In this document: piece by piece, positions 4,438-22,915 of the stretch
Layout: every line of letters begins with the position of its first letter
How positions within the stretch are numbered: the stretch's first letter is position 1
Origin: a virus
Reading direction: 5' to 3' (one strand)
Length of the DNA stretch: 22,928 nucleotides
Virus record (IMG/VR): IMGVR_UViG_3300023276_000774
Coordinates: 1-22,928 of that record
Position numbers and translations under genes: made by a program
Notes under the pieces: model-generated
What the model saw: the letters and a program-made list of their open reading frames with translations, nothing else
What the model was told of the DNA's origin: nothing
The model's database searches: none

Positions 4438-7400
4438 ATGGATATTAATACTAATTTTATAGCAGGGCGAATGAATAAGAGCGTTGATGAACGCTTAATT
4501 CCTCCAGGAGAATACAAAAATGCATTAAACGTTAGATTAGGTTCTACAGAAGCTACTGATATTGGAGCTGTAGAAAATTCTAAAGGAAACGAAAAATTAA
4601 CTACTTTACAGTATGGAGGAAATCCTTTGTCCGTTAACGCTACTTGTATAGGCGCATATGCAGACGCTATAAGAGAAACTATGTACTGGTTTGTTCATGA
4701 TAAAAATCCAAATGGAACTACAGTAAATTTAATTGTATCTTATAATAGTATTACAGCAATAACAACTTATCATGTTATAAGTGTTGTTGTTTTAAATTTT
4801 AATCCTTCTTATTTAATTACAGGAGTTCAATTAGTGGAAGAGCTGTTGTTTTTTACTGACAATTACAATCCTCCAAGGGTAATAAATATAAATAGGAAAT
4901 ACGGATTACCATCAGGAGGTGTAGATACTTTTACAGAAGATGATATAAGTCTTATTGTTAGACCACCAGGATTTTCTTCTTTTTTTAATCCTATTTCAGG
5001 TAATAGAGAATTTGATTTAGCAGTTCCTACAGTAACTCTTAATGAAACTACTAATAATGAAGAGAATTTTTTAAATGATCGTTTTGTATCTTTTGCTTAT
5101 AGGTATCGTTATTTAGATAAACAATATAGTGCAACATCATTATTTACACAAGCTGCATTTCAGCCTAAAGCTTTTAATATAGAACCTGAGTCTATGATTA
5201 ACGATGGGATGATAAATAGATATAATTCTGCAACAATAGAATATAGTACAGGGCCTAAAAATGTTTTAGAAATACAATTATTATATAAGGAATCCACTTC
5301 AAATGTTATATATATAATAGAAAGTTTTGTTAAAAGTGAATTAGGTTGGAATGATAACGAGAAAAAAGAATTTCAATTTTCTGCAAGTAAAGTGTACGGA
5401 ACTTTAGGTTCTGATGAATTACTTAGACAATATGACAATGTTCCCCAATTATCTCAAGCTTTAACTATTCAAGGAAATAGAATAATGTTGGGTAATTATA
5501 CTGAAGGATATAATATATCAACAATTAACGGTCAACTAATACCTATTAATTACTCTGCTTTATTAACTTCAGACCCTTTAACTGGAGTTTATTTAAACTC
5601 TCCATTTTCATTAGCTTTAACTAATGATAATCCCGTTACAATTACTTATTCACTTACTCCTGTAAGTCTTCTTCCTTATGTATTATATGATGTGGGTCCA
5701 CTTGATTATTCAAGAATAGTTTTTGATTTATCTACTGTACCACTTCCTATTGAACAAGGTACAGTATTTGATTTTCCTATGCAATTTTATGCAGTAGAAA
5801 CTTCAGGAACAACAGGGGCTGCTCTTAGCTTAGGAATTTTAAATGATGGTGCCGTAATAGGAACTGCTATTGATCCTATAAAATTAACTTTTTCATATAC
5901 CGCTAACCAAGAATTTTTATCTGCTGCTGATATGATAGATTCTGATAACTTTAGAAATGCTGTAGGTGTAAATGTAAACCCAAGTACAGCCATTGCTGAT
6001 GCGCCTACAGGAGGAACTTTTATGGATGTTTTTAATCGTACTATGATTGATATAGCAGATACACGAACTATAGGCGGAGAACAATATACATTTGCATTTG
6101 AAGGTTTTTCCAGTCCAACAAATCCAGCGATACTTTCTTACATTCCTACTGCTAAAAGGTTTAATCAAATTAATGGAGTGCTTGATTGTTTTTCAATAGC
6201 ATTTCCTGCTGTACGGTTTGATGGTACGGTATCAGGAACTGAAATATTTAATTATTTTAGATTTGTTTTAGAAGATGTTGTTACTACTATTCCTACACCT
6301 TATCCTCCTTTACGTCCTATAATCAGCCCAATTTTTCAAGAAAATTTAAGATCTTTACATAGCAACAGAGATTATGAGGTAGGGTTAGTCTATATGGATG
6401 ATTATGGAAGAGCATCTACAGCTTTAGTTAGTTCTCAAAACACTGTTTTTATTCCTTCAAGTTCATCTGTAAATACAAATAGAATTAACGTAACTTTAAG
6501 AAACAAGCCTCCATTTTGGGCTAAAAAATATAAATTTGTTTTAAAACAATCCAGGGCAACATATAATGTTATTTATGTAAGAAGATTTTATGAAGACCCA
6601 AGTGACACTTCAATAGTTTGGATGGCTTTAGAAGGAGAAGATAAAACTTTAGTAAAAGAAGGAACTCAATTTAACGTAAAAAGAGATGATTCAGGAGCTT
6701 TAAATACATCTGTAATTGCTACAGTTTTAGCTGTAGAAAATAAAGAACGAGGAGAATTTATTACTGACATTAGTTTACCAGGTTTATATATGTCTATAAA
6801 ACCAAATAATTTTAATGTTACAGCAAACATAACAGATGCTATAAATTTTGGTCAAAATCCAGGTATTAATATTAGAGCTGAAGGGTCATATCCATTTTGT
6901 AATTACCCTGTACCTCAAATTTTTAACGATACATCTCAACAATATGAATTAGCACCTATACCTCAAGGGGCTATTATAAAAATTAGTTTTAGAGTTTGGA
7001 GAACTGAATGGGATCCTTTTATAGGAGGTAGCGACCCAAGTTTTGACTGGAGATGGTCTCAGACATTTGTAAGTCCTTTAGCCTATGATAATTTTTTAGA
7101 ATGGTGGGTAGGTGAAAACATAGAGGCTTATGCAGGCGGAACATCTAATGATGGTCAAGCACAAATGATATTACCACCTGAAGTTGAAAATGACACACCA
7201 ACTTCTACAACGCCATTTGGATTTATTGACGGAGGTAGTTCTTTAAGTCCGTCTTCTTATAGTGGTACTTTTGGACTTTTAAGTGCAGGAGATAGACCAA
7301 CAACCAGAGGAGGTTTAAAATATTTGTTTCTTCAAAGAACAGCTGGCTCATTAATAGTCCCTGAAGAAAAAGAATGGTTTTTACAACTAAACGCTTATTT

Positions 7401-9696
7401 ACCATCAGGAGGTTCATCAATTGACAAAAGACCTGCTCATGTAGATATGAATATAGAGTTTTATGGACAAGATAATCTTTTAATATTTGAAACTTTACCT
7501 CCTGATGCTGATCCTAATTTATTTTATGATTCTTCAGAAATGTATAATATTGATACAGATTTAAATGGAGATTTAGCTCATGAAGGAAATATACAAAATC
7601 AGACTATTGCTACTGCAACTCCTGCAATAATTCAATTACCATTTTTTAATTGTTTTTCATTTAGCAATGGAGCAGAAAGTTATCAAATTGAAGATAGTGC
7701 AGTTGGTAAAGCTTTAACATTAGGACAACGAACAACAGCTATATCTAATATTGAATATGCAAAACAACTAAGACAGTCAAGTATAACATATAGTGGTATT
7801 TATTATCCTTCTTCGGGGTTAAATAACAGTAATGAATTTAATTTAGGTTTAGCAAATTTTTCAGATTTAGAAACAAACTTTGGTCCTGTAATGAAATTAC
7901 ATTCCAGAGAAACAGATATATTAGTATTACAAGAAGATAGAATATCTTATGTTTTAACAGGTAAAAATATTATTAGCGATTCAGTAGGAGGGGGAGCAAT
8001 AGTTTCGGTGCCAGAAGTTTTAGGAAAACAAATAGCTCGAATAGAAGAGTATGGTATAAGTTTTAATCCTGAAAGTTTTACATCTTGGGGTAAGAATATT
8101 TATTTTAGTGATACAAAAAGAGGAGCTATAATACAATTAACAGGAGGAGCTGTTAATAATGAATCATTAACAGTTATTTCTGACACAGGAATGAGGTCTT
8201 ATTTTAGAGATAAATTTATTACTCAATTAAATACACAAAAATTAGGAGGGTATGATCCTTACATGGATGAATATGTTTTTTCTTCTAACACTAAATTAAT
8301 ACCAGTTAAAACTCCTGTTTCTCCTTGCGGAAGAGTTATTACTCCTCAATCGCAATCAGCAACTTATAATGTTAGCATTGAAGTAGGAGCAGTAGTGGGA
8401 ACTGTTAATATTGGTTATAATATTTCTAATCCAAATACAGCAACATTAGATATTACAGCAACATTTAATGGTGTAGATACAATAGGAACAGCATTATCTG
8501 GAGCAGGAGGCTTAAAAGTTGCTAAAACAACTATGTTTCCTACAACAATAGATATTACTGTTATACCTTCTGAAAAATGTACTTACAGTATAGATCCTAA
8601 GTGTATAACAGCAAAATCTGACACTTTTGTAACTCAATATGTTTTAGCAGCAGCTCCAAGAAGTAGAAACCCTCAATTTCATTTTGGATTTAATTGGACA
8701 GATGGAATATATATAAGTCCTGTAAGTAATAACTTAGCAAGAAACGTAACCCCATCACAACGTGACTGTCCTCCTTCTTTTGGAACAATAAGTATTGTAT
8801 CAGACAGTGGTATTGCTTCTTCAGGTGTAATACCATATGGGGGAACAACAATTAATATGTTTGTAGACTCATTAGACTATCCAAATCAAGATAATGTTAA
8901 GTTTGATGCAAGTCGTGGACATAAAATGTATGCTTTTACTCAAAGAACAATCATAGCAGGGTGTAATCAAAATTTAATTTCTGATTTATCAACTAAAACT
9001 CCTTTAACTGTTGTTAATAATATAGACAATAAATTTGAAGCACAGTACACTAATTTACCAATATCACTAACAACATATTCAAATACCAATTCACCAATAG
9101 CTCCTGCAAATTATATAGCTGACAATTCAGTAGATTTTACTACATTAACATTTTATGTTAATGATATTGTTACAGCTGCATCAGGATCTGTTGGTAAAAT
9201 TCTTACTATTGCCCCTAATTTAATACAGACAGGAAACAGTCTCACTGGTGTTCCTGAAATAATAGTTGCTCCAGGAGAAGGCTATACTATAACACGAGTT
9301 AATGTACCTCAAGTAATATTAGTATATGATATGAGAGATAAAACAGGAGCTGCAGGGTGTAGAGATAGTGATACCAATCTTGTTTGTACTTGTGTTGGGC
9401 TATGCACTCCTAATGTTATGACTGCTGACCCTCAAGCATCTCCACTTGCTGCTTGTTTAAATGGTTCAGGACAGTTTCCTTATAATGGAAGTTTAGTAGG
9501 AAGAAGTCATGATGGTGCTGGACCTATTCCTGTGGTTGGGAATATGATTTATAATGCTAACTTTACAACTTGCGACCCTACTGATGTACCTGCTGATGGA
9601 TGGTATTCTGTTTCAGATCAATGGAGTAATAATTCTAATATAGTAATACAAATAAGTAACGGTATATGTATTGCTTCACAAACACAAACTTGTTAA
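4438..9696 (+). CDS. Giant tail stabilisation / nozzle-like virion protein
   Basis: This 1752-aa protein begins DINTNFIAGRMNKSVDERL, then PPGEYKNALNVRLGSTE and AVENSKGNEKL. This opening is typical, to my knowledge, of the large tail stabilisation (P22 gp10/nozzle-type) proteins of crAss-like and marine Bacteroidetes phages. Further family-like motifs are LLFFTDNYNPPRVININ (near 150), VGLVYMDDYGRAST (near 650) and, at about 1145-1260, KLHSRETDILVLQEDRISY, GGGAIVSVPEVLGKQ and a WGKNIYFSDTKRGAI propeller-like blade. Length and composition suit a beta-propeller/beta-sandwich tail tip. The last 450 residues differ: they are Cys-rich, with clusters at 1641, 1650, 1652 and 1656 and then 1673, 1712, 1744 and 1752. 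They include a beta-type module at about 1555-1622 and a C-terminal module ending in Cys. This tail part may be the variable, host- or surface-facing portion. Confidence 0.8.
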   Translation: MDINTNFIAGRMNKSVDERLIPPGEYKNALNVRLGSTEATDIGAVENSKGNEKLTTLQYGGNPLSVNATCIGAYADAIRETMYWFVHDKNPNGTTVNLIVSYNSITAITTYHVISVVVLNFNPSYLITGVQLVEELLFFTDNYNPPRVININRKYGLPSGGVDTFTEDDISLIVRPPGFSSFFNPISGNREFDLAVPTVTLNETTNNEENFLNDRFVSFAYRYRYLDKQYSATSLFTQAAFQPKAFNIEPESMINDGMINRYNSATIEYSTGPKNVLEIQLLYKESTSNVIYIIESFVKSELGWNDNEKKEFQFSASKVYGTLGSDELLRQYDNVPQLSQALTIQGNRIMLGNYTEGYNISTINGQLIPINYSALLTSDPLTGVYLNSPFSLALTNDNPVTITYSLTPVSLLPYVLYDVGPLDYSRIVFDLSTVPLPIEQGTVFDFPMQFYAVETSGTTGAALSLGILNDGAVIGTAIDPIKLTFSYTANQEFLSAADMIDSDNFRNAVGVNVNPSTAIADAPTGGTFMDVFNRTMIDIADTRTIGGEQYTFAFEGFSSPTNPAILSYIPTAKRFNQINGVLDCFSIAFPAVRFDGTVSGTEIFNYFRFVLEDVVTTIPTPYPPLRPIISPIFQENLRSLHSNRDYEVGLVYMDDYGRASTALVSSQNTVFIPSSSSVNTNRINVTLRNKPPFWAKKYKFVLKQSRATYNVIYVRRFYEDPSDTSIVWMALEGEDKTLVKEGTQFNVKRDDSGALNTSVIATVLAVENKERGEFITDISLPGLYMSIKPNNFNVTANITDAINFGQNPGINIRAEGSYPFCNYPVPQIFNDTSQQYELAPIPQGAIIKISFRVWRTEWDPFIGGSDPSFDWRWSQTFVSPLAYDNFLEWWVGENIEAYAGGTSNDGQAQMILPPEVENDTPTSTTPFGFIDGGSSLSPSSYSGTFGLLSAGDRPTTRGGLKYLFLQRTAGSLIVPEEKEWFLQLNAYLPSGGSSIDKRPAHVDMNIEFYGQDNLLIFETLPPDADPNLFYDSSEMYNIDTDLNGDLAHEGNIQNQTIATATPAIIQLPFFNCFSFSNGAESYQIEDSAVGKALTLGQRTTAISNIEYAKQLRQSSITYSGIYYPSSGLNNSNEFNLGLANFSDLETNFGPVMKLHSRETDILVLQEDRISYVLTGKNIISDSVGGGAIVSVPEVLGKQIARIEEYGISFNPESFTSWGKNIYFSDTKRGAIIQLTGGAVNNESLTVISDTGMRSYFRDKFITQLNTQKLGGYDPYMDEYVFSSNTKLIPVKTPVSPCGRVITPQSQSATYNVSIEVGAVVGTVNIGYNISNPNTATLDITATFNGVDTIGTALSGAGGLKVAKTTMFPTTIDITVIPSEKCTYSIDPKCITAKSDTFVTQYVLAAAPRSRNPQFHFGFNWTDGIYISPVSNNLARNVTPSQRDCPPSFGTISIVSDSGIASSGVIPYGGTTINMFVDSLDYPNQDNVKFDASRGHKMYAFTQRTIIAGCNQNLISDLSTKTPLTVVNNIDNKFEAQYTNLPISLTTYSNTNSPIAPANYIADNSVDFTTLTFYVNDIVTAASGSVGKILTIAPNLIQTGNSLTGVPEIIVAPGEGYTITRVNVPQVILVYDMRDKTGAAGCRDSDTNLVCTCVGLCTPNVMTADPQASPLAACLNGSGQFPYNGSLVGRSHDGAGPIPVVGNMIYNANFTTCDPTDVPADGWYSVSDQWSNNSNIVIQISNGICIASQTQTC
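9100..9303 (+). other. Beta-type module in the C-terminal part of the giant tail protein
   Basis: Residues about 1555-1622 read IADNSVDFTT, then YVNDIVTAASGSVGKILTI, then GEGYTITRV. The arrangement (Asp-Asn/Ser start, xxDIV, a variable turn, a hydrophobic strand, Gly-x-x-Tyr-x-Ile end) matches the modules in the genes at 1203 and 2541. Boundaries are approximate. Confidence 0.45.
9446..9693 (+). other. C-terminal Cys-ended module of the giant tail protein
   Basis: Residues about 1670-1752 contain AACLNGSGQFPYNG, then VGNMIYNANFTT, VPADGWYSVSD and ISNGICIASQTQTC at the very end. I recall this pattern (lYxdaxLTxxAxdGfYs...G.I....C) from C-terminal modules of Bacteroidetes phage and cell-surface proteins. 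The next small gene is a free-standing unit of the same type. Confidence 0.5.
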
Positions 9697-9879: not shown

Positions 9880-10641
9880 ATGGCAAACGAAGAAACTTTA
9901 TCTTATAGCGAAGGGTCCAAAGGATGGCCTTCATTTTACTCTTATATTCCTGAATACATGATGGGAATGAATAGTTATTTTTACAGCTTTGATGGCGGTA
10001 ATCTTTATAGGCACAACACTAATCCACTAAGAAATAATTATTACGAACAACAATATAGTTCATCTATTACAGGAGTTTTTAATTTTAGACCTCAACAAAT
10101 AAAAGTATTTAAAACAATGTCTCTTGAAAGTAATGCGGCTTGGGAGTGTAAAGAACTTATTACAGATTTAAATACAGGATCTATGTTAGACACTTACTTT
10201 GAACAAAAAGAAGGGGAGTGGTTTAGCTATATAAGAAATACATCAAAAACTTTAGACTTTAAATTAAGGTCTGCTAATGGATTGGCTAATTTATTAAGTT
10301 CAGCTGCTGCAGTACCTGCAAGTACTATAACTTTAACTTTTTCTGAAGATGTAGGAAGTATTATTAATTATGGCGATCAAGTATATTTGCAATCGGGAGC
10401 ATCTAATACATTAATTGGAACGCTAACATCTAAAAAAGCTAAAAGTATAGAAGTTTTATATACAGGGATTTTCCCAGTGTTAAATCCTGGAGACTTTATA
10501 TTTTATTATAAAAACCCTATAGCAGAGTCAAATGGAGCAAGAGGATATTTTTTACAATTTACATTAGAGCTTCCTTTAACAACAATAACACCAGTTGAGT
10601 TGTTTTCTGTAGGCAGTAGCATCATGCAAAGTTATCCATAG
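9880..10641 (+). CDS. Conserved tail/virion structural protein
   Basis: This 253-aa protein has a strikingly aromatic N-terminal half: GWPSFYSYIPEYMMGMNSYF, then SFDGGNLYRHNTN and the segments KVFKTMSLESNAAWECK and EGEWFSYIRN. I recognise these as a conserved structural protein of marine and Bacteroidetes phages, found beside the tail genes, without an assigned biochemical role. Residues about 147-212 again contain a beta-type module (YGDQVYLQSG, TLTSKKAKSIEVLYTGIFP, PGDFIFYYK), inserted before a C-terminal stretch GARGYFLQFTLELP. It starts 8 nt after the small gene in an A-rich leader. Confidence 0.75.
   Translation: MANEETLSYSEGSKGWPSFYSYIPEYMMGMNSYFYSFDGGNLYRHNTNPLRNNYYEQQYSSSITGVFNFRPQQIKVFKTMSLESNAAWECKELITDLNTGSMLDTYFEQKEGEWFSYIRNTSKTLDFKLRSANGLANLLSSAAAVPASTITLTFSEDVGSIINYGDQVYLQSGASNTLIGTLTSKKAKSIEVLYTGIFPVLNPGDFIFYYKNPIAESNGARGYFLQFTLELPLTTITPVELFSVGSSIMQSYP
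10318..10515 (+). other. Beta-type module in the conserved tail protein
   Basis: Residues about 147-212 follow the same plan as the modules in the 416-aa virion protein and the 323-aa connector: xGDxVY, a strand with a T/S-rich turn, an alternating hydrophobic strand, FP...GDFIFYY. The residue spacing between GDQVY and GDFIFYY is close to that between NDIVY and GESYFI. Confidence 0.45.
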
Positions 10642-10648: not shown

Positions 10649-10656
10649 TATCTTTG
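10649..10656 (+). promoter_or_regulatory. Candidate -7 box (TATCTTTG) directly before the acetyltransferase ATG
   Basis: TATCTTTG fits TAnnTTTG and lies in the 20-nt gap before the ATG at 10662. With the usual distance from the box to the transcription start, the transcript would begin within a few bases of that ATG, giving a leaderless or nearly leaderless message. No -33 TTG at normal spacing is visible. It may be a chance match. Confidence 0.35.
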
Positions 10657-10661
10657 TGATA

Positions 10662-11064: not shown

Positions 11065-12129
11065 ATGGGAGCAATAACAACAATAGCTATTGGTTTAGGA
11101 AGCGCAGGTTTAAGCTTTGCACAAGCTTCTAAAGCTGCAGAAGACAATAGAAAAGCAAACAGACAGGCCGCTAAAGAAATGGCGAAATTAAAAGACAGAG
11201 CAGGAGTTAAGTTTACTGATAAGCTTAGTTTAAATACAGATTTATATGAACAGCAGTTTGAGCAAAACTTACAAGTAAATGCAGATTTAGTAAATGCTGC
11301 AAGAGAAGCGGGACCAAGAGAGGTTGCTGCATTAGCAGGAAGAATAGGTGCGTCTCAAACGGCAGCCAATGAAGCTGTTCGTCTTTCACAAACAGATAGG
11401 TTACAAGAAATTGAAGCGTTGCAGATGGGTGAACAGAGTGAGATAAATCAACAGCTTTTAGCTATTGAAACGGCTCAGTTACAAGATAAGGCAGCAAGAG
11501 ATGCACAAACAAGACAGGTTGTGGCGGGGGCTACTATGAGTGGTATTAATTCTTTAACAAACATGGCTACTACACTGGCAAAAGATATTCCTGAAAACCC
11601 TATGAGTAAAGATACAAAAGCTTTAAAATCTACATTAGATAAAAACAATATATCTTATGCAGATTATACAGCAAATCCTGATCAGTATAAAAATTTATTT
11701 TTTAATGCAGACGGTGGTCCTATTGAAGATGGTTTAATGAGTTTAGGCACGCTTCCTGCAGGATTAGAAATGCCTAAACCTTCTGTAAATAAAGATGGAA
11801 GTGATCCTGTAATTCAAAACACATTGGACTTGCAAAAAAAGCAGTTAAATCAGTTAATAGATATGGATGCAGGGCCTATCACTCTTGGTGGTTTAAGTGA
11901 TAAAGAATTGATGGATGAGTCTATAGTAGAAATGAATTATAACACAGGTCCAAATCCAAATAATATTATAGGTCAACAAAGAAATTCTGCAATTCAAGCA
12001 GCGGGGGGTTCTTTAGCTCCACCTCCTACTACTCAAGACCCTAATATGGGTATACCAGGTTATGTACCACTTCCTCAAGTATCTTATGATGATATATTAC
12101 TTAAGTACGGAATTAAATCACAATTTTAA
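11065..12129 (+). CDS. Internal virion / ejection protein, T7 gp14-like position
   Basis: This 354-aa protein begins with a hydrophobic Gly/Ala/Ser stretch (TTIAIGLGSAGLSFAQA) followed by a highly charged coiled-coil-like region (KAAEDNRKANRQ, AKEMAKLKDR, then Gln/Glu/Ala-rich helices to about 155). A second mildly hydrophobic stretch (VVAGATMSGINSLTNMATT) follows, and then a Pro/Gly/Asn-rich, probably disordered C-terminal half. This composition is typical of the smaller podoviral internal virion proteins that enter the cell envelope during DNA ejection. It is first of three adjacent genes of rising length, as gp14, gp15 and gp16 are in T7. The assignment is by order, size and composition; I see no diagnostic motif. 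The start overlaps the context taatATG, one base after the preceding stop. Confidence 0.6.
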   Translation: MGAITTIAIGLGSAGLSFAQASKAAEDNRKANRQAAKEMAKLKDRAGVKFTDKLSLNTDLYEQQFEQNLQVNADLVNAAREAGPREVAALAGRIGASQTAANEAVRLSQTDRLQEIEALQMGEQSEINQQLLAIETAQLQDKAARDAQTRQVVAGATMSGINSLTNMATTLAKDIPENPMSKDTKALKSTLDKNNISYADYTANPDQYKNLFFNADGGPIEDGLMSLGTLPAGLEMPKPSVNKDGSDPVIQNTLDLQKKQLNQLIDMDAGPITLGGLSDKELMDESIVEMNYNTGPNPNNIIGQQRNSAIQAAGGSLAPPPTTQDPNMGIPGYVPLPQVSYDDILLKYGIKSQF

Positions 12130-12131: not shown

Positions 12132-13871
12132 ATGGCAAGACAAAATATAAATTTTAACACGTTTGTTCCTGAAGATTTAACTAAATCAACTATTGATTGG
12201 GGAACAGTTGCCTCTGGTTTAACAACTCAATTAAGTGCAATAAAAAAAGAAAAAGAACTTAAATTAAGTGAAGAAGAAGATAAGACGTATGAAGCTAATA
12301 GAACATTGCGTGATCACGAACAGTATGATAACAACACGCTTAATAGTTTAGTTATTGATGCTTCAGGTGGAGCTCAAGAGTTTTTATCTATACAAAATAA
12401 ATTATATACAGACGGATTAATTAATCAAACAGATTTAACTAAAGCAAGAGATCGTATTTCAAATAATTTTGCAGATTTTAGTAAAGCTGCTAAAAATTAT
12501 GATAAGTCTTATAAAGAATATCAAGAACGTATAAAAGCTGATCCTTCAACAAATTTTGCAGGCTCTTCATTAATTGAACAAAATTTTGCTAAGTCAGCAT
12601 TAGCTTTTGGAAACTTAAAAGGTTTAGTGCAATATGTAAACCCTACATCGGGAGATATTTCTTTAGTTAGACCTAATGAAGATGGTAGTATACCAAAAGA
12701 CCCTTCTAAACATATGCCTTTTACAGGGATGAATAAAAGATTAGGTTTTAGATTAGATAAATTTAATGTACAAGATAGAACAAGTGCTATAGTAGATGGT
12801 TTAGGTATTACTATGAAAGAGGCAGGTCAAATTGGTGATGCTACTAAATTCTGGGAAGGACAGTCAGCTAAGGTATCTAAATATATAGATGGATTTATGG
12901 TTAAAGATTTAGATGTTGCAAGTGTATTGGTAGACTCTATGGGTCAAGATTATTACACTACAACAGATTTAAATGATACTAATGAAAATGCTATACATAT
13001 AGACTATTCTGAAGACAATCAACCTACTATTATAAAAGGAGACAGATGGACAAAACAAGAATTAGCTGCTAAAGAATATTTAGAAGAAGTAATGAAAGAT
13101 CAGATGGACAGTAAAATAAAAGCTGTTAGAACAAGAGATGGGTCTTCTAAAGTAGATGATCGTAGAAATGAAGAGTTATGGAGAAAAACAGAAAGACCGT
13201 TACCTGATTTTGCACAACCAAGAGTGATAGGCCCTAATCAATTAAATACTACAGGACTTGATTATATAGAAGATGAATTAGAAAAAGATGTTGGTAGGGG
13301 ATCTTCGGATTTAGGTAGTTCTGATACAGATGCAGAAATACAATCTACTTATTATGACGCTACAAAGTCATATGTTCCAGCGCCAGTGCAACAGTTTTTT
13401 AACAATAGTGGTCAAGGTTTAAGTATAAATTATATAGATGGTAAATCAATTAAAGAAGTAGTAGACCCATCAACTGGTGAAAAAACATATGAAGTTTATT
13501 ACACTGTAGTAGGTGGTTCACAAAGAGGAGGAAGAGGAAAAGCCTATCGTATTCCTGATGCAGATTTAAATAATGGAGCAACAAAAAATTCATTTAAAAC
13601 ATGGCAAGAAGCTGAAAGACAATATGAAGGTGCAGGAAGGAACGGTAAGAGAGAAGATGAATTTATGGTTGTGGAGCTTGGAGGAGAACGTTTAGTAATA
13701 CCTAAGATAAGAGGAAGGTCAAATGCAAATATTTGGGAACTTGTGCAATCAGATGTTATAAATCCAGCTATAAATAAATATAATAATGATAAGTATAATG
13801 AAATTTATGGTGAAGATATGCCAGGGTACACAGCACCTAATAGCGGAACAGGATCAAATTACAATACATAA
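12132..13871 (+). CDS. Putative internal virion protein, T7 gp15-like position
   Basis: This 579-aa, mostly polar and charged protein has no signal peptide and no membrane segment. The first 180 residues are predominantly helical (AIKKEKELKLSEEEDKTYE, then AAKNYDKSYKEYQERIK). The middle has mixed strands (VKDLDVASVLVDSMGQDYY). The last 200 residues contain KTYEVYYTVVGGSQRGGRGK, FMVVELGGERLVIPK and a flexible Asn/Gly/Tyr-rich end. I do not recognise a catalytic motif. The role is inferred only from its position between the gp14-like gene and the giant gp16-like gene, with 2-nt and 5-nt spacers indicating a single coupled unit. Confidence 0.6.
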   Translation: MARQNINFNTFVPEDLTKSTIDWGTVASGLTTQLSAIKKEKELKLSEEEDKTYEANRTLRDHEQYDNNTLNSLVIDASGGAQEFLSIQNKLYTDGLINQTDLTKARDRISNNFADFSKAAKNYDKSYKEYQERIKADPSTNFAGSSLIEQNFAKSALAFGNLKGLVQYVNPTSGDISLVRPNEDGSIPKDPSKHMPFTGMNKRLGFRLDKFNVQDRTSAIVDGLGITMKEAGQIGDATKFWEGQSAKVSKYIDGFMVKDLDVASVLVDSMGQDYYTTTDLNDTNENAIHIDYSEDNQPTIIKGDRWTKQELAAKEYLEEVMKDQMDSKIKAVRTRDGSSKVDDRRNEELWRKTERPLPDFAQPRVIGPNQLNTTGLDYIEDELEKDVGRGSSDLGSSDTDAEIQSTYYDATKSYVPAPVQQFFNNSGQGLSINYIDGKSIKEVVDPSTGEKTYEVYYTVVGGSQRGGRGKAYRIPDADLNNGATKNSFKTWQEAERQYEGAGRNGKREDEFMVVELGGERLVIPKIRGRSNANIWELVQSDVINPAINKYNNDKYNEIYGEDMPGYTAPNSGTGSNYNT

Positions 13872-13876: not shown

Positions 13877-16800
13877 ATGAACGAACAAGCTATACAAGAC
13901 GGATATAAATATTTTAAAGAAACTGGATATAAAGGTTCTTTAGAAGATTACGTGCAATTAATGGCGACAAATCCTAATGCTGTAAAAGATACTTATAAAT
14001 ATTTTAAAGAAACAGGGTATAATGGCTCGGAACAAGATTTTAGTGTTTTATTTGGTATTGATAAAGGTGTAAAAAAAAAAGATCAGCCTCAACCCGTTCC
14101 AGTGGATTCAGATGGTTCTGGGGACATGGAAATTACGGAGGAAGTTTTACAAGAAGAGGAGGGAGTTCAGCCTATTTCTTCGGCTTATTTAAACGAACAA
14201 AATCTTGATTTTAATCAAGCAGAAGTAAAACCTTATAGTCCTATAGGGTCTGACTCTCAGATGGAAAATTTATCGGTAGGAGAAAAAAGCACAGCTTTAG
14301 AGCGTACTTTTGGTAAAAATGAATTTACAGATTTCTTTGGAGATATGTGGCGTGCAGGAGTTCAAGGGCAAGCGCAAGGAGGTACAGTAGATGAAGCTTT
14401 AGAACTTATGGGTAAATCCAGGACGGGAATGGATATTACTTCAGATGATATTCAAGATTTTTTAGCAGCTCAAAGCAGAATGCAAAATGCAGGGGTGTCT
14501 GATGAGATGAAAGATTTTAATCGCATTTACGCAGAAAATGGTGGTGGTGCATGGGGATGGGTAAAAGGAGTTATTGCTAACCCAAGTACCATAGGACAAT
14601 TATTTGTTTCTTCAGTTAGCGCTATGTTAAACCCTACTGTTTTAGCAGGTGCGGCAGTAGGAGGTTTAGGAGGTTCTGCAGTTCCTGTTCTTGGAACAGC
14701 TTTAGGAGCTTTTGCAGGTGCAGGTGTGACATTAGAAACAGGATTGACTTTTGCAGAACTTTTACAAAAAGAAGTTTTAGATAGAGGGTTGAAATTTGAT
14801 GAGGCAGGTGTAAGAGATGTTTTAGAGAGTGATGATGCAATGAGTAGTATAAGAAATAGGGCGGCAGCAAGAGGAGCTGTTATTGGAGCTATTGATGGTA
14901 TTGCTTCTAAAGTAGGTATTAAAGTAGGGGCAAGAACTTTAGGTAAGAAAGCAGCATATGGCGTAAAAAAAAGTCTAAAAGCAGGAGTTAAAGTAGGGGC
15001 CATTGAGGCTGTAGGAGGGTCTCTTGGAGAAATAGGAGGTAGACTTGCAGCAGGTCAAGAAATGGATGCAGCAGAAATATTATTTGAAGGTGCGGCAGGT
15101 ACAGCTACACTTCCAGGTACACTTGCAATATCAGCATACAAATCTCCAAAATATTATATTAATAAAAGTAAGTTTGATGAGTCTCAAAAAGATTTAACAA
15201 GAGTAGACCCTGATGTTATGCAAGATATGGTATACAATTCTTCTGATAAAGATTTTGCAGCAACAGAAATTACTATAACCAACAATCCTGAATTAAAAAA
15301 AGTTGCTGAAGAAAGAAGAAATAAAATAAAACAAAAAGCAAACGCTCAAAAAGAAATTTTAGATGCTAAACCTGATATTCCTCAAAAAACTTTAGACAAA
15401 TTAGTTCCTTTACAAGAAGAATTAAATAAATTAGAGGGAAATAAATCACAGGCTGCTAAGGAAAGAAGAAAAAAAATAATTGCAGAAATGCAGGCAATTG
15501 AAGAAACAAAAGTAACTGAAACAACTAAAGAAACTAAAGAAACTAAAGAAACTGTTGAGACTACACCTGAGACAAAAAAAGAAGCAAAATCTTTAGCTGA
15601 AGAAATAGAAGTAGAAACAGAGGTAGAGAATACCTCTGAAAATCAAACAGAAGTAGTAGAAGAGACGGTTAAAGTTGTTAAAGGAGATGAAATTAAAACT
15701 AATCAACCTGTTAATATAAAGTATAATAGAAACAAAGAAAAGTCCCCCGATATGGGTTCTGAATTTGGACAAGATGTTGAAGCAAGCGGAATTTATATTA
15801 CACAAGATAATGGTTTTACTCCTGATGGTTTTGAATCAGGAACTGCAGATATTAAATCGCCATTAGTTATTGAAGTTACAGATGACACACAAATTGAATA
15901 TAAAAGAGAGTTATCAAAAAAATACAAAGGAAAAAAAGGAAAAGCATTATCTAAAGCTTTAATAAAAGATGGTTATGATTCTATTATAACAAAATACGAA
16001 GATGGAACAACGGGTGAAATAATTATATTAGATGATAGCATAATAAATAAAACTGAAATTAAACAAGATGCCAATACAGAGCAAAGCACAACTACGATAC
16101 CTGGCCAAGAACAAACCACAACTACTCCAGAGGTGGATCAAGGAAACGCCAAATCTGAAATCCCTTCCAGAAAAAGTGAGTCCGATACAAAAGTTGAAAA
16201 ACAAAAAACAGACACGCAAAAGAAAGCGAAAGTAAAAGAATTAAAAGCTATAGCTCCTAATGCTTATGTAAATGAATCTGATTCAGGATCACGTAAACGT
16301 TCAGAGAAATTTATAAAACCAACAAAAAGAGCTTTAGCTGCTTTAAAACGATTAGCACCTAAAGTAATGGTTGTTATTCATGAAACGGAAGCAGACTATC
16401 AAAACGCTACAGGTAACAACAAAGTAAGATCAGCTGGATTATTTAACCCTAAGACTAATATTATACATATAAATGCTGATATTGCAAATGCACGTGTATT
16501 ACAACACGAAGTATTTCATGCTATATTAAAAAATAAGTTAGGATCAGAATCTAAAATTGCTGCACTTTCTGACAGAATGATGAAGGCTCTTGCTAAAGCA
16601 GATTTAAGTCCTGAAGCAAAAAAACAAATTGATAAATACCTTAATTTATATAAAAAATATAACAAAGGAGATAAAAAAAGAATGGCTTTTGCTAACGAAG
16701 AATACATGGCAGAGGTATTTAGTTTTTTAGCTAACAATATGGCTACTTTAAAAGCTCCTGAAAAAACTATTGTACAAAAATTTTTAAGTAAGTTAAGTAA

Positions 16801-19800
16801 TTTGTTAGGGTTAACTGCAGAAGATATTATTGCAACTGATAAAGATATGATTGACTTGATAAACGTAATTGCAGGTAAAGTACAGACAGGAGAAACAATT
16901 ACTAAGTCAGATGTAAAACAACTTGATTTATTTGCTGGAGGTAAAAATGTTAAAAATCCTTCAGCTGCTTTAAAGACAATGATTTATGGTGATTTTGAAA
17001 TCACATATACAGAAGATGAAAAGATAGCTGAGTATATAAAAGATGGATTGATTAAAGAACCTAAAACTGTCAAAGAAATATTTGAAGGCATGGGTAATAA
17101 TGTAGAGGTTTCTGTTCATTCTCCTGATGATATGCTTGCAGGTGAAATAAAATATAAAGGAGAACAAATATTTGAAGGATCAGGAGGAATATTTTTTGTA
17201 ACTAAATTTGGAGATGTGTGGGCTTCAACTGAAGCAGCTGCAGAACAAATAGTAAAAGCTTTAAACAAACAAATAGACAAACAAGGTAAAGCTTTTTTGA
17301 TGTTGGCTAAAGGTTCAGATCAAAAATTAATGAGTAGTGCTTCGGGTGTTCAAGGTGCTATGAAAATTTTAGATTTAATGTTAGATAATAATATATTTTC
17401 AGCGTCTGAATTCAGAGCTGCCGTAAGTAGGGCGGTAACAAGAGAACAAGCAAGACTAACAACAAAAGCTAAAAAAGACAAGAAACCTGCTCCAAAGTTT
17501 AAGCCTTTTAAATTAAGAAAAAGTGCAAAAGATATAAAGAAAGATATTGTAAAGTTATTTAGCGATGAAAAATCAGGAACATTTGAAACAAGAGGTAATA
17601 TAGTAAAAGGTATTGCTGATTCTTTAGCAGCAGCTAAGTTAACTTCAGAACAACAATTGAGGGCAGCTGAGTTTTTAGGTGGAGATACTAAAAGAAAAGT
17701 TGGTGTAGGATCAACAGTACAAGCAAAAACAGGGAAAGCTTTACAGCAAGGTCTTTCTGACTTATTAGCTTTAGCAATGGCAGAAAATATCACTAAAGGA
17801 TTAAGCACAGGAGATATATATGGAGTTATAGAAGTTAATCAAAAAGTAAAAACTTTTGATAGTAAACATCCAAGTTATGATAAGACTATAAAAATTGTTG
17901 ATGAAAATGGTAAACCAGTTGAAGGAAAAGAAGGAAAGCCTATATTACATTTACCTCAAGACAGAGAAGCTGGTTCAGAAGTATTAGTACCAAATTTTGG
18001 TAAAGAAAATACTTCTACATATAGCCCAGGTCAAGTTCCTACAATGACAGGTGAAGTTAATATGAGTGAAGTAAAAACTTCTGTATTTGTTTTGTTTGAC
18101 AAATCAGATACTGTTAATGATGTAGTAGCAAAAGCTCGTGGTAGAGATTATAGTGATGCTGCTATATATGAATACTTACGTAACAACAGAAAATTAACTG
18201 TAGATGCTGCACGAGCTGCATTAGAACAAAAAACAGGTGAATTCACTGGTATGCCTTTTGAATTTACTCGTGTAGAAGATAACAAAGGACAAACTTTATT
18301 TAATGAAATTACTTATGAAATAAAGAAATGGATGAGAAAAAATCCTAACGCCACTTCTATTCAAGTAGCCAAAGAATCTTTAAAGATACTAAGAAATAAT
18401 GATATATTTAAAGCACAATATAAAACAGTTAAAGCTCAAGTAGAAATAAGTTATGCAGGTTTTCTTAATAATATAAAAAGTCAAGTAATTAAAAAAAGAA
18501 TTGCAAGATTAAAACGTGATTTATATTTAAGAAAACAAGGAGAAATAGATTTAAGAAAAGTACAATTACAACTTAAGCAATTAATAGATAAATATTTACC
18601 TGCTGAAGCTACTTATTCTAAATCAGAAGTTAAAAACTTACTTACTTTGGTAGCTAATTCTAATGCTGATTCTATTTTATCTGTAGGAGAGAAAGTATTA
18701 AAAACAGTAAATCGCAAAAGAGATCAAGTTAAAAATAATATTATTTTTGACATGAAAAAAATTCTTAATAAAGCTTTAAAAGAAACAGGAAGCAGACCTA
18801 AAGCAACAAGTGTAGAAGCCCAAGGTAAAGAGTTTTTTAAAGATGTTATTGATGTCATCAGAGCTGTAACACTTCCAAATACAATTGGAAAAGGAGAGAC
18901 GGCAAGCAAAAGAACAGTGGCCTTATCTAAATTATCTAATCAAATTAAAGCTAACGAAGAAGCAACCAATATAGCTTTAGAAAAAGAAAAACGTAATGAA
19001 AGATTAACTGTAGCAGAAGTTAGATTAATTAATAGAGTATTAGCTTTTGACACCTATTCTAATATACAAAACTTAGAATTAGAAGCTGTAAAAGATTTAT
19101 ATAATTTATTAAAACAAGAGAAAAAAGCCTCTATTGCTATGTTAAATGCATCACGTTTAGAAAGAGCTGAAATCAACAATGATATTTATAATCAAGCAAC
19201 TTCAGAAATTAGAGAAAACCATCCTGAGTTATTTGATAAAGTAACAGGAGAAGTTCTTGATAGCGAAAAAATAGATCAGATAAGAAATCAAATGTTTTCT
19301 GGTACTCTTAAAAACAAATTAACAAATTGGTGGAATCAATATAAATTTACATCTGGAATAGGTATTGCAAATTTTTTTAGAAATCAAATGTCTCATTTAG
19401 GAACACTAATGAACTTATTAGATAATGTTGCTAAAAAGAATACATTCTTTTATGAAAACGTTTATCAAGCAATGAATAGAATGCACACTAAAGCTTTAAG
19501 TGGCTATTACAATCAACAAGAAATTTTAAATAATATTGCTGCTACTATCCCTGGTATAGAAAACTTTAAAGATTGGAAATCTAAAATACCTTTTGGGATT
19601 AGAGAATTAATGTTAAATGATAAAACTAAAGCCCAATATAATATTGGTCAATTAATAAGAATTTATGCTTTATCTAAAAACGCTGATCAAAGAATTAAAT
19701 TAGAAGCTAATGGATTTGGTCCAAAACAATTACTACAAATAGAAGAGTTTATCGGAACAGATGCAATAGAGTTTGCAGATAAAATTGTAGAGTATTTAAG

Positions 19801-21472
19801 CACAGATTATTTTGAAAGCATTAATGATGTTTATCTGCAAAATAATTATGTTAATTTAAATCCTGTGGAAAATTATTTTCCTACTAAAAGTATTTCTGCT
19901 GCTAATCAACAAGAGCTACAAGGAGGTAATTTTAGCCAAGTATTTAATCAAGAAAACAATTCGGCTACTAAAAATAGGACTGACTTGACAGGTAAAATAG
20001 ATACTAAGGAGACTTTTACTGACACATTAGAAAATCATATTTCACAAATGGAACGGTATAAAGCTTATGCTCCAGGTGTTAAAAATTTAGAAGCTATTTT
20101 TAAAGTTCCTGCTGTTAATACCTTATTAACTGAATTAGGGGTTAAAAAAACTATATATAACTCTATTAATTTAGCTTTAAACCCTCAAGCAGGAATGATA
20201 AATAGAACAGTTATAGATAAAATAATGACTAAATTTACAGGTTTTGCTTTATCTTTTAAGGCAGTTCAGTTGCTTAAACAATCTACATCATTTGTAAATG
20301 CTTTTGAAGAATATGATGGTAATATTGGTGAGTTTATGATAGGAATGGCTAAAGTAATTGCTAACCTTCCTTATTACATAAGATTAGCTAAAACAATATC
20401 ACCTGATTTTACTGATCGTTTGCGTAAAGGTTTAGAAGGAGATATTTATAGGTTAGAATCAGGAAGTAGAATTATGAAGCCTATAGAAAAAAGACTTACA
20501 GGATCTGATGCTGAAGGAAGAATAAATCGTGCAGTTACTTTCTTTAAAAAAGCTGCAGCCTCTCCAACTGTTATAGGAGATGTTATGGGAGTAATGGGAT
20601 ATATGGTAAATTATGAAAGAAATTTATCTAAAGGTATGTCTAAAGCAAAAGCAGCAGAAACTTTTAATAATTATAATGCTACTCAACAATCAAGAAGAGA
20701 CACTGATAAAATTCCACTTCAACAAAGTCAAAGCGCATTTGTTCGTCCATTTACAATGTTTGGAAGTACTTTGTTTTTACAAATAAATAAGGTATTACAA
20801 GCACAATCTAATATCATGAAGTCTATTGCTGAAAAAGGAAAAGTTAGAGATGTAAAAAGCAAAGATATTAGAGCTTTAGCTTTAAATTTTGCAGGAGCAA
20901 ATGTAATGTTTGCTTTAGCTGCAAATATAGCTTTATTAATAAAAGGTGATGATGAAGATAAGGAGGTAGCAATGAACAGAGTAAAAGATGCAATGTACGG
21001 ATTAAACTTATTATATCAAATACCTCTTTTTGGATCAGCTGCAGAAGAAGGAATTAATAAAATAAAAGGTAGAAAAGGTTTTAGTGATGATGTTGTTAAT
21101 CCTTATAAGGCTATAAGTAGAAAAATATTTAAGGCTACAAAAGATAAAAGTCTTTCTAAAGGAATACAACCTCTTGTAGAGATAGGCTTAGGAGCTCAAT
21201 TAGACCCTTTTATTGGCCTGTATAATATTTTTGGAGCAACAGATAAGGATCAAGATAAAGCTGTGTATAGTGTGTTAGGAATTAGTCCTTCATATCAACC
21301 AGCTTTAGGTAAGTCATATTCAAAAGAAGATTTAAAATTTATTAAAGAAACTAATCCTGAATTATACGAGCAACTACAAAGAAATAAAAAAGGCAGTACT
21401 AAATTAAAAAGTAAATCTGTAATGAGAGTAGAAAATCCTGAATTATATTATCAATTATATGGAACATACTAA
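13877..21472 (+). CDS. Giant polyvalent ejected protein with zincin-like and ART-like regions
   Basis: This 2531-aa protein is the largest in the window. In order: two 30-residue repeats (5-28 and 35-58, YKYFKETGYxGS); an acidic linker; a Gly/Ala-rich hydrophobic region (about 223-425), possibly membrane-inserting; a Lys/Glu coiled coil with a KET repeat (about 470-600); a candidate ADP-ribosyltransferase-like region (about 611-727) with SGIYIT (638-642), GYDSII (699-704) and GEIIILDDS (E714); a Thr/Gln/Lys linker; and an HEVFH zinc-protease motif (H877, E878, H881) followed by NEEYMAEVF (E941, E942, E946). A conserved-looking segment with GGIFF lies near 1103, then long helical regions, then a hydrophobic span near 2333-2355. 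Such proteins are known as large polyvalent proteins that phages package and inject. Size and place correspond to T7 gp16. I find no lytic transglycosylase or RNA polymerase motif. Confidence 0.75.
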   Translation: MNEQAIQDGYKYFKETGYKGSLEDYVQLMATNPNAVKDTYKYFKETGYNGSEQDFSVLFGIDKGVKKKDQPQPVPVDSDGSGDMEITEEVLQEEEGVQPISSAYLNEQNLDFNQAEVKPYSPIGSDSQMENLSVGEKSTALERTFGKNEFTDFFGDMWRAGVQGQAQGGTVDEALELMGKSRTGMDITSDDIQDFLAAQSRMQNAGVSDEMKDFNRIYAENGGGAWGWVKGVIANPSTIGQLFVSSVSAMLNPTVLAGAAVGGLGGSAVPVLGTALGAFAGAGVTLETGLTFAELLQKEVLDRGLKFDEAGVRDVLESDDAMSSIRNRAAARGAVIGAIDGIASKVGIKVGARTLGKKAAYGVKKSLKAGVKVGAIEAVGGSLGEIGGRLAAGQEMDAAEILFEGAAGTATLPGTLAISAYKSPKYYINKSKFDESQKDLTRVDPDVMQDMVYNSSDKDFAATEITITNNPELKKVAEERRNKIKQKANAQKEILDAKPDIPQKTLDKLVPLQEELNKLEGNKSQAAKERRKKIIAEMQAIEETKVTETTKETKETKETVETTPETKKEAKSLAEEIEVETEVENTSENQTEVVEETVKVVKGDEIKTNQPVNIKYNRNKEKSPDMGSEFGQDVEASGIYITQDNGFTPDGFESGTADIKSPLVIEVTDDTQIEYKRELSKKYKGKKGKALSKALIKDGYDSIITKYEDGTTGEIIILDDSIINKTEIKQDANTEQSTTTIPGQEQTTTTPEVDQGNAKSEIPSRKSESDTKVEKQKTDTQKKAKVKELKAIAPNAYVNESDSGSRKRSEKFIKPTKRALAALKRLAPKVMVVIHETEADYQNATGNNKVRSAGLFNPKTNIIHINADIANARVLQHEVFHAILKNKLGSESKIAALSDRMMKALAKADLSPEAKKQIDKYLNLYKKYNKGDKKRMAFANEEYMAEVFSFLANNMATLKAPEKTIVQKFLSKLSNLLGLTAEDIIATDKDMIDLINVIAGKVQTGETITKSDVKQLDLFAGGKNVKNPSAALKTMIYGDFEITYTEDEKIAEYIKDGLIKEPKTVKEIFEGMGNNVEVSVHSPDDMLAGEIKYKGEQIFEGSGGIFFVTKFGDVWASTEAAAEQIVKALNKQIDKQGKAFLMLAKGSDQKLMSSASGVQGAMKILDLMLDNNIFSASEFRAAVSRAVTREQARLTTKAKKDKKPAPKFKPFKLRKSAKDIKKDIVKLFSDEKSGTFETRGNIVKGIADSLAAAKLTSEQQLRAAEFLGGDTKRKVGVGSTVQAKTGKALQQGLSDLLALAMAENITKGLSTGDIYGVIEVNQKVKTFDSKHPSYDKTIKIVDENGKPVEGKEGKPILHLPQDREAGSEVLVPNFGKENTSTYSPGQVPTMTGEVNMSEVKTSVFVLFDKSDTVNDVVAKARGRDYSDAAIYEYLRNNRKLTVDAARAALEQKTGEFTGMPFEFTRVEDNKGQTLFNEITYEIKKWMRKNPNATSIQVAKESLKILRNNDIFKAQYKTVKAQVEISYAGFLNNIKSQVIKKRIARLKRDLYLRKQGEIDLRKVQLQLKQLIDKYLPAEATYSKSEVKNLLTLVANSNADSILSVGEKVLKTVNRKRDQVKNNIIFDMKKILNKALKETGSRPKATSVEAQGKEFFKDVIDVIRAVTLPNTIGKGETASKRTVALSKLSNQIKANEEATNIALEKEKRNERLTVAEVRLINRVLAFDTYSNIQNLELEAVKDLYNLLKQEKKASIAMLNASRLERAEINNDIYNQATSEIRENHPELFDKVTGEVLDSEKIDQIRNQMFSGTLKNKLTNWWNQYKFTSGIGIANFFRNQMSHLGTLMNLLDNVAKKNTFFYENVYQAMNRMHTKALSGYYNQQEILNNIAATIPGIENFKDWKSKIPFGIRELMLNDKTKAQYNIGQLIRIYALSKNADQRIKLEANGFGPKQLLQIEEFIGTDAIEFADKIVEYLSTDYFESINDVYLQNNYVNLNPVENYFPTKSISAANQQELQGGNFSQVFNQENNSATKNRTDLTGKIDTKETFTDTLENHISQMERYKAYAPGVKNLEAIFKVPAVNTLLTELGVKKTIYNSINLALNPQAGMINRTVIDKIMTKFTGFALSFKAVQLLKQSTSFVNAFEEYDGNIGEFMIGMAKVIANLPYYIRLAKTISPDFTDRLRKGLEGDIYRLESGSRIMKPIEKRLTGSDAEGRINRAVTFFKKAAASPTVIGDVMGVMGYMVNYERNLSKGMSKAKAAETFNNYNATQQSRRDTDKIPLQQSQSAFVRPFTMFGSTLFLQINKVLQAQSNIMKSIAEKGKVRDVKSKDIRALALNFAGANVMFALAANIALLIKGDDEDKEVAMNRVKDAMYGLNLLYQIPLFGSAAEEGINKIKGRKGFSDDVVNPYKAISRKIFKATKDKSLSKGIQPLVEIGLGAQLDPFIGLYNIFGATDKDQDKAVYSVLGISPSYQPALGKSYSKEDLKFIKETNPELYEQLQRNKKGSTKLKSKSVMRVENPELYYQLYGTY
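13889..14050 (+). repeat. Two direct 30-residue GYxGS repeats at the N-terminus
   Basis: Residues 5-28 (13889-13960) and 35-58 (13979-14050) share YKYFKETGYxGS with exact 90-nt spacing, and both continue with an acidic residue, an aromatic and Leu. The DNA is also partly conserved (TATAAATATTTTAAAGAAAC in both). I recall tandem units of this kind at the N-terminus of giant proteins of other Bacteroidetes phages. A role in docking to the portal or packaging into the head is a guess. Confidence 0.8.
15527..15553 (+). repeat. Triple 9-bp tandem repeat (AAAGAAACT)
   Basis: Three exact copies of AAAGAAACT lie in frame, encoding Lys-Glu-Thr three times, within a charged linker. Copy number could change by slippage without breaking the frame, altering linker length only. 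Confidence 0.9.
15708..16056 (+). other. Candidate ADP-ribosyltransferase-like region of the giant protein
   Basis: Residues about 611-727 hold R618, SGIYIT (638-642), IKSPLVIEV, LIKDGYDSII (to 704) and TGEIIILDDSII (E714). The last two motifs match what I recall of polyvalent-protein ART domains, which end GYDGI...ExVVFxPxxI. R618 and E714 would be the candidate NAD-binding and catalytic residues. An STS-type middle motif is not clear, so this is a tentative call. Confidence 0.4.
16331..16750 (+). other. Zincin-like metalloprotease region of the giant protein
   Basis: Residues about 819-958 contain KVMVVIHETEADY, then NPKTNIIHINADIAN, then QHEVFHAIL with H877, E878 and H881 (16505-16519), and NEEYMAEVFSFL (E941, E942, E946). 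The HExxH motif on a helix after a strand pair, with an acidic helix about 60 residues on to supply a third zinc ligand, is a gluzincin-like plan. E946 or E942 is the best candidate for the third ligand. No catalytic residue appears to be missing. Confidence 0.65.
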
Positions 21473-22707: not shown

Positions 22708-22915
22708 GTTCTTTTAATTGTTTTAGTCTAAACTTCTGTAGCATAGATACTTTACCATCAGGCTTTTTTATTTCAGAAAATAATACATCTGAATTTTTAG
22801 GTATAGCTATTAAATCAGGTATCCCATTTCTATTTGTTACTGTTAATTTAATAACATAATAGCCTTCATCTTCCAATTGGTTTATTCTTTTCAATTGGAT
22901 TTGATTCTCTGTCAT
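22673..22915 (-). CDS. VRR-NUC domain nuclease
   Basis: This 80-aa protein is a minimal VRR-NUC domain of the PD-(D/E)xK nuclease superfamily. The catalytic core is visible: GIPDLI with D34, then FSEIKK with E48 and K50, and the family-typical KxSxxQ with Q60 beginning the last helix, ending in LKEHGIKTEIY. Phage stand-alone VRR-NUC proteins are structure-specific endonucleases in the few cases studied (for instance cleaving Holliday junctions), so a role in replication, recombination or packaging is likely. The start is secure: the only upstream in-frame codons before the edge include a TAG at 22927-22925. It overlaps the next gene by 35 nt and has a promoter-like box 4 nt before its ATG. 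Confidence 0.9.
   Translation of the reverse strand: MTENQIQLKRINQLEDEGYYVIKLTVTNRNGIPDLIAIPKNSDVLFSEIKKPDGKVSMLQKFRLKQLKEHGIKTEIYRGD

What the first reader, a model, noticed from the sequence alone, without database searches (positions are those of the whole stretch)
13877..21472. Giant ejected protein combining zinc-protease and ART-like regions
Directly seen: HEVFH (residues 877-881) with a downstream NEEYMAEVF, a Gly/Ala-rich hydrophobic stretch of about 200 residues, duplicated N-terminal repeats and a GYDSII...GEIIILDD region. Known: phage large polyvalent proteins carry several effector domains and are packaged and injected with DNA. Inferred: this protein fills the T7 gp16 slot but appears to deliver a protease and possibly an ADP-ribosyltransferase, a candidate early host-takeover or anti-defence effector. 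Most of residues 1100-2531 match nothing I can name, leaving room for further domains.
Basis: partly seen in the sequence, partly recalled or inferred. Interest (0 to 1): 0.72.

Follow-up and report, generated by a model that had tools for sequence, protein, structure and literature searches.

The report
Giant phage injection protein with protease
A bacterial virus related to the gut "crAss" phages encodes a giant 2,531-residue protein, probably packed in the virion and injected into the host, that carries a protease-type domain and an interchangeable payload domain; it resembles known multi-tool injected phage proteins, but the payload swap between near-identical phages is unusually clear.

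Summary
In detail: one 2,531-aa ORF (13877-21472) with HEVFH 877-881, NEEYMAEVF 940-948, a Gly/Ala-rich stretch and an N-terminal duplication. It is the last gene of a Crassvirales-like tail/ejection operon (rings, muzzle, small virion-type genes, giant).

The zinc-protease reading is well supported. H877, E878, H881 and E942 are invariant across divergent relatives, and the best solved-fold matches are HExxH zincins. The likely third ligand is E942, not E946.

The ADP-ribosyltransferase reading is not supported. Residues 591-728 are a different, unnamed phage domain: R618 varies, E714 is invariant, ART-PolyVal never matches. It sits in an exchangeable slot: a 97%-identical relative carries an unrelated ~250-aa cassette there, and a third relative carries both.

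Relatives carry ART-PolyVal, Kinase-PolyVal, LPD23 or DUF3293 domains, so this is a polyvalent ejection protein laid out like phage N4 gp50 (N-domain, payload, zincin, ~1,150-aa helical C-domain).

Unexpected: 45 of 52 giants begin with a short duplication, alike within a protein but different between proteins, usually ending in KKK, and itself swapped between near-identical phages.

Packaging is inferred from synteny; protease targets are unknown. New variant of a known kind.

The parts
13877..21472 (+). giant protein, 2,531 aa, last gene of the tail/ejection operon
   Evidence: relatives L002 (97% id), L003/L004 (56%), L006 (63%) span the whole length
13880..14080 (+). N-terminal tandem-duplicated tag (aa 2-25 and 32-55) ending in KKK (aa 66-68); role inferred (packaging or docking)
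   Evidence: score 88 vs shuffle max 49; same layout in 45 of 52 proteins; DNA copies 83% identical over 46 bp
14264..15556 (+). conserved Gly/Ala-rich N-module (aa 130-560), phrog_32588-like; delivery/membrane part (role inferred)
   Evidence: phrog_32588 E 3.9e-61; found in most of the 51 non-redundant giants, with or without zincin
15647..16060 (+). exchangeable cassette (aa 591-728): unnamed phage domain with FGQDxEPxGxY ... GYD[GAS]I[IV]T ...
   Evidence: replaced by an unrelated cassette in L002 with 97% identical flanks; family of 9 in unrelated phage proteins
16274..16756 (+). zincin metallopeptidase domain (aa 800-960)
   Evidence: invariant catalytic residues; secondary structure; fold and profile matches
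16505..16519 (+). HEVFH, aa 877-881: two zinc ligands and catalytic Glu
   Evidence: invariant in all complete segments; on helix 872-888 of the model
16694..16720 (+). NEEYMAEVF, aa 940-948; E942 predicted third zinc ligand
   Evidence: E941 and E942 invariant, E946 is Gln in L075; on helix 941-957 of the model (low confidence there)
16757..17902 (+). post-zincin region (aa 961-1342), shared with Flavobacterium elemo phages
   Evidence: 27.5% identity over aa 830-1342 to the elemo 'structural protein'
17903..21469 (+). almost entirely alpha-helical C-terminal region (aa 1343-2531), no known relative of solved structure
   Evidence: mean pLDDT 55; no significant fold or profile match; 31% identity to MW202828 giant
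12132..13871 (+). gp15-like middle ejection protein by position (579 aa); its C-terminal third is hypervariable among relatives
   Evidence: position; homologues upstream of most family giants
11065..12129 (+). gp14-like small ejection/virion protein by position (354 aa)
   Evidence: phrog_13764 virion structural protein E 7e-08; similar to phi13:2 gp124
4438..9696 (+). muzzle-type tail protein (1,752 aa)
   Evidence: phrog_14478 E 3.7e-207; homologues in Cellulophaga and elemo phages
9880..10641 (+). protein with crassvirus muzzle C-terminal domain
   Evidence: PF25729 E 1.5e-14

Best explanation
A giant, probably virion-packaged ejection protein of a Crassvirales-related podophage (probably of Bacteroidota) built on a plug-in plan: duplicated N-terminal tag plus KKK, Gly/Ala-rich delivery module, an exchangeable payload cassette between flexible linkers, a zincin metallopeptidase, and a ~1,190-aa helical C-domain. 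Proposed working: the protein leaves the virion after the two smaller ejection proteins encoded upstream; the N-module and helical C-domain help move or anchor it across the envelope; the payload and the zincin act inside the host, with the zincin most likely cutting the linkers to free the payload (about 45%) rather than cutting host proteins (about 30%) or serving a structural or regulatory role (about 25%). Shown: architecture, conservation of the catalytic residues, the slot exchange. Inferred: packaging, ejection order, the cleavage itself.
For: Zincin: catalytic H, E, H plus E942 invariant. The top 10 PDB fold matches are all HExxH zincins (PPEP-1, lethal factor, IrrE/PprI; best E 0.2). 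A profile hit to IrrE 3dte is aligned on IHIN...HExxH (E 0.04). The model secondary structure fits the zincin core, and BFVD matches the elemo structural protein at E 1e-23. Polyvalent nature: family members carry ART-PolyVal, Kinase-PolyVal and LPD23 and DUF3293. Payload slot: window 15647-16060 is replaced in L002 with 97% identical flanks; L006 carries both cassettes and L039 the second one. The window cassette occurs in unrelated polyvalent proteins, e.g. L095 with InPase, ddrB-ParB and ART-PolyVal. Delivery: gene order matches Cellulophaga phi38:1 and phi13:2, whose last giant gene is annotated structural/virion structural; crAss001 cargo proteins were found in virions by mass spectrometry (PMC10172136). 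N4 gp50 has an HExxH C1 domain followed by a large helical C2 with no known fold relative (PMC12633501).
Against: No cleavage site, substrate or activity is shown. The N4 vRNAP, which has the comparable domain, is packaged uncut according to PMC5512222. The PDB fold matches are individually weak and the AlphaFold model is of modest confidence (mean pLDDT 61; about 50 around E942). No profile similarity of the N- or C-modules to N4 gp50 was found. The giant itself is not detectably similar to the phi38:1 or phi13:2 giants.
Confidence: 0.55

Rival explanations
1. The zincin is a host-directed effector protease: it cuts a host (for example defence or envelope) protein after injection, and the 591-728 cassette is a second, independent effector.
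For: Catalytic residues are invariant while the flanking payloads change; PMC5512222 lists this as one possible role of polyvalent-protein MPTases; the closest folds include substrate-specific proteases.
Against: The same zincin family is kept across phages with very different cassettes, which suits a generic processing role better than one host target; no target is known.
Confidence: 0.3
2. The zincin fold is a structural or regulatory part of the ejection protein (as the N4 gp50 C-terminal domain, which inhibits its RNA polymerase) and its peptidase activity is secondary or absent.
For: N4 gp50 carries an HExxH C1 domain in a C-terminal domain whose reported role is autoinhibition (PMC12633501).
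Against: H, E, H and E942 are invariant in all complete segments across highly divergent proteins, which a purely structural role would not require.
Confidence: 0.2
3. One reading: residues 611-727 are an ADP-ribosyltransferase using R618 and E714.
For: The order of predicted elements and motifs (beta1, GIYIT, PLVIEV, GYDSII, GEIIIL) loosely resembles ART-PolyVal; E714 is invariant in 9 of 9 relatives.
Against: No match to PF18760 at E up to 10; hhalign probability 0.6% (though the ART profile was built from three sequences); R618 is R/H/K/W; L095 carries a genuine ART-PolyVal as a separate domain of the same protein.
Confidence: 0.15

Closest known systems
Phage polyvalent proteins with zincin-like MPTase domains (Iyer et al. 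2017, PMC5512222)
   Same: Giant phage protein combining a zincin with exchangeable effector domains; family members carry ART-PolyVal, Kinase-PolyVal and LPD23; HExxH plus downstream helix Glu.
   Different: The window protein itself matches no Pfam polyvalent domain; its payload domain and helical C-region are unnamed; it sits in a Crassvirales-like operon, and the paper's text does not mention crAss phages.
Coliphage N4 virion RNA polymerase gp50 (with gp51, gp52)
   Same: Gene order small-middle-giant; N-domain, payload, HExxH domain (C1), then about 1,100 helical residues (C2) of unknown fold; local motifs HELVHA / NEFMAW line up with HEVFHA / NEEYMAE.
   Different: No RNA polymerase payload and no DxDGD motif found; profile similarity not significant.
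Crassvirales cargo proteins (crAss001 gp45-gp47)
   Same: Giant gene downstream of the muzzle in a related tail module; large virion cargo.
   Different: No sequence relation to gp47 was tested; the structure paper does not mention a protease.
Flavobacterium elemo phage structural protein (e.g. QMP85520.1, 3,667 aa)
   Same: Shares the zincin and post-zincin region, 27.5% identity over 513 aa, HEIFH and NEEKLSE.
   Different: Different N-terminal region and other domains (DUF3293).
T7 gp16
   Same: Last of three ejection genes; giant, with a largely helical region (from general knowledge).
   Different: No sequence relation shown; comparison by gene order only.

Membership tests
zincin-like metallopeptidase (MPTase of polyvalent proteins) | HExxH on a helix | tested here: met
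   H877-E878-V-F-H881 on helix 872-888; invariant in all complete homologue segments
zincin-like metallopeptidase (MPTase of polyvalent proteins) | Glu ligand on a second C-terminal helix | tested here: met
   E942 invariant, on helix 941-957 of the model, at low local confidence
zincin-like metallopeptidase (MPTase of polyvalent proteins) | N-terminal helix and three-stranded sheet before the motif | tested here: met
   helix 806-826, strands 831-835, 854-857, 862-866
zincin-like metallopeptidase (MPTase of polyvalent proteins) | significant match to a known zincin family or fold | tested here: inconclusive
   IrrE profile E 0.04; PDB fold E 0.2, probability up to 0.63, top 10 all zincins; DUF5700 'putative zinc dependent peptidase' E 1.3e-4 in a family member
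zincin-like metallopeptidase (MPTase of polyvalent proteins) | zinc-dependent proteolysis | not testable with these tools
   needs purified protein
polyvalent protein | several unrelated effector-type domains in one polypeptide, varying among relatives | tested here: met
   zincin plus exchangeable cassette; relatives with ART-PolyVal, Kinase-PolyVal, LPD23, DUF3293
ADP-ribosyltransferase (ART-PolyVal, PF18760) | match to the family profile | tested here: not met
   none at E up to 10 in the window or L002-L006 records; none on the cassette of its relatives
ADP-ribosyltransferase (ART-PolyVal, PF18760) | H (strand 1), Y (strand 2), D (strand 5) active site, per PMC5512222 | tested here: not met
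   the presumed strand-1 position is R/H/K/W; the presumed strand-5 position is an invariant Glu (E714)
virion ejection protein | last gene of an ejection operon next to tail genes | tested here: met
   gene order as in phi38:1, phi13:2 and N4
virion ejection protein | present in purified virions and ejected | not testable with these tools
   relatives annotated structural/virion structural; basis of those annotations not checked
N4 gp50-type giant ejection protein | sequence homology of N- and C-modules | tested here: not met
   hhalign probabilities 1.4% and 0.3% against single N4 sequences

The most novel reading that the evidence does not exclude
The duplicated N-terminal tag, together with the hypervariable C-terminal part of the upstream gp15-like protein, is an exchangeable lock-and-key address that admits a particular giant cargo to a particular ejection channel, so that phages can trade payloads and addresses as cassettes.
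Probability: 0.15. Interest if true: 0.75.

Novelty: new variant of a known kind. Interest (0 to 1): 0.55.

Why it matters
It puts polyvalent-type effector delivery, known from N4-like and temperate phages, into a widespread aquatic Crassvirales-like phage group for which cultured relatives exist (elemo, Cellulophaga phages), and gives a near-natural experiment: two 97%-identical giants differing in the payload cassette. It also delimits an unnamed phage domain and an unexplained, duplicated, fast-changing N-terminal tag that can be tested directly as a packaging signal.

Tried and rejected
ART assignment of 591-728: Pfam, PHROGs, PDB profile, family search in the records, and hhalign all negative. 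Known fold for the helical C-region: none. Virion RNA polymerase payload: a D[FYAI]DGD motif was found in 1 of 156 large ORFs and not in the window protein. Homology of the modules to N4 gp50: not significant. Tag to upstream C-terminus co-variation: partial Mantel 0.024, p 0.28 given backgrounds, so not supported across the family; the joint swap in L027 can be explained by adjacency. A search of bacterial genomes for the cassette found 4 MAG contigs with the second pattern set, none with the first. Assembly chimera as the cause of the cassette difference: unlikely, since both junctions lie in intact ORFs and each cassette recurs in other assemblies.

Full report
1. What is there. The window is a 22.9-kb linear IMG/VR virus record. 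Its operon runs: ring-type (by position) virion proteins at 2541-3512 (phrog_14543) and 3516-4436 (phrog_13977), a muzzle-type protein at 4438-9696 (phrog_14478, E 3.7e-207), a muzzle C-terminal-domain protein at 9880-10641 (PF25729, E 1.5e-14), an acetyltransferase-like protein at 10656-11063 (weak), a small virion-type protein at 11065-12129 (phrog_13764), a 579-aa protein at 12132-13871, then the giant. After the giant and an 85-aa ORF the genes turn to the minus strand.

2. Relatives. The giant has full-length relatives at 97% (L002), 63% (L006) and 56% (L003, L004) identity, and partial ones in many virus contigs and in Flavobacterium elemo phages and MW202828. Profile searches gave 51 non-redundant giants or fragments. 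Modules combine freely: N-module with zincin and C-module (window group, L023, L036, L039), N-module with zincin only (L007), N-module with C-module but no zincin found (L045), N-module alone (L009, L060, L062 and others), zincin without a detected N-module (L014, L021, L033), C-module without the N-module (L015).

3. The zincin. H877, E878, H881, E941 and E942 are invariant in the 24-sequence alignment and in all complete segments aligned, which include elemo; E946 is Gln in L075. By composition 0.004 such motifs are expected. The AlphaFold model (mean pLDDT 61) gives an N-terminal helix, three strands, the HExxH helix and a second helix starting at E941, which is the zincin core as described in PMC5512222. 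Foldseek's top ten solved structures are all HExxH zincins (PPEP-1, lethal factor, IrrE/PprI), none individually significant; a profile hit to IrrE aligns IHIN...HExxH at E 0.04; the BFVD best hit is the elemo structural protein at 1e-23. The third ligand is most likely E942: E942-Y-M-A-E946 fits the E-xxx-E/D spacing of gluzincins (general knowledge) and lines up by eye with N-E-F-M-A in N4 gp50 (sequence).

4. The payload slot. DNA of window and L002 is 96.9-97.3% identical on both sides of 15647-16060, but inside that interval no similarity is found: 414 bp against 779 bp. The window cassette belongs to a domain family seen in nine phage proteins of different architecture, including L095 with InPase, ddrB-ParB and a separate ART-PolyVal, proteins with their own HExxH (L086, L087, L101), Gordonia phage Skog gp167 and four MAG contigs. 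Invariant residues, in window numbering: E635, P662, K676, Y683, G688, L691, D698, G699, Y700, D701, T705, E714. The L002 cassette recurs in L006, L039 and L040 and partly in L046 and L047; L006 carries a divergent form of the window cassette followed by the L002 cassette. Other near-identical pairs (L026/L028, about 98%) also differ by whole internal segments. This is cassette exchange in a probable ejected protein, a theme suggested for polyvalent proteins in PMC5512222.

5. Not an ART on present evidence. PF18760 does not match the cassette or its relatives' cassettes, the profile comparison gives 0.6% (the ART profile is thin), and R618 is not conserved while E714 is. The loose resemblance in order of elements is noted, not counted. 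ARTs do exist in the family: L026, L028 and L032 carry ART-PolyVal after the zincin. L025 carries Kinase-PolyVal and LPD23, L022 and elemo DUF3293.

6. Delivery. Gene order equals that of Cellulophaga phi38:1 and phi13:2: muzzle, small genes, middle gene, giant last, with detectable similarity for three of the small genes and none for the giant. Those giants are annotated structural or virion structural; whether by proteomics was not checked. crAss001 cargo proteins, including a 262.5-kDa one (gp47) numbered after the muzzle (gp44) and two smaller cargo proteins (gp45, gp46), were detected in virions (PMC10172136). N4 offers the nearest working model: gp52, gp51, then gp50, whose N-domain is proposed to follow gp51 out and whose C-terminal part is an HExxH domain plus a large helical domain of unknown fold (PMC12633501). 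No sequence homology of the modules to N4 gp50 was shown, so "works like", not "is".

7. The N-terminal tag. Of 52 proteins examined, 45 begin with a duplication of 15-48 residues that beats all 60 shuffles. Copies resemble each other within a protein (normalised score 0.58) far more than between proteins (0.17), and the tag usually ends at a KKK-type motif. In L027 against L026 and L030, giants about 94% identical elsewhere over the stretch compared begin with a wholly different duplicated tag; the swapped DNA block also holds the C-terminal part of the upstream gp15-like protein. Across 42 loci tag and upstream C-terminus do not co-vary beyond background (p 0.28). A packaging or docking signal is the simplest guess. 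A duplicated tag also begins the 450-488-aa protein two genes upstream in L021 and L025.

8. Verdict. Known kind (polyvalent, N4-like layout), new variant.

Noticed in passing
13880-14080; also N-termini of about 45 relatives (L008, L015, L027, L076 and others): Duplicated N-terminal tag, alike within and unlike between proteins, usually ending in KKK; exchanged between near-identical phages (L027 vs L026).
   Followed up: partly
L027:5897-6686 vs L026:6601-7439: C-terminal part of the gp15-like protein and the giant's N-terminal tag are replaced together, with conserved flanks.
   Followed up: partly
L002:2035-2829, L006:12185-12727: Second payload cassette (about 180-265 aa, motifs VNPNHRDSA and TIVGDSK) with no significant match in PHROGs or in phage records.
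   Followed up: partly
L112:2710-3318 (Gordonia phage Skog gp167): Small 202-aa protein carrying the window's payload domain, next to two genes annotated glycosylase.
   Followed up: no
22673-22915 (-): VRR-NUC / Holliday-junction-resolvase-like protein (PF08774 E 8.1e-09).
   Followed up: no
10656-11063: Acetyltransferase-like protein (phrog_1758, E 0.0015) inside the tail operon; a similar protein is in phi38:1 (gp098), and MW202828 has a gene annotated acetyltransferase at the matching place.
   Followed up: no
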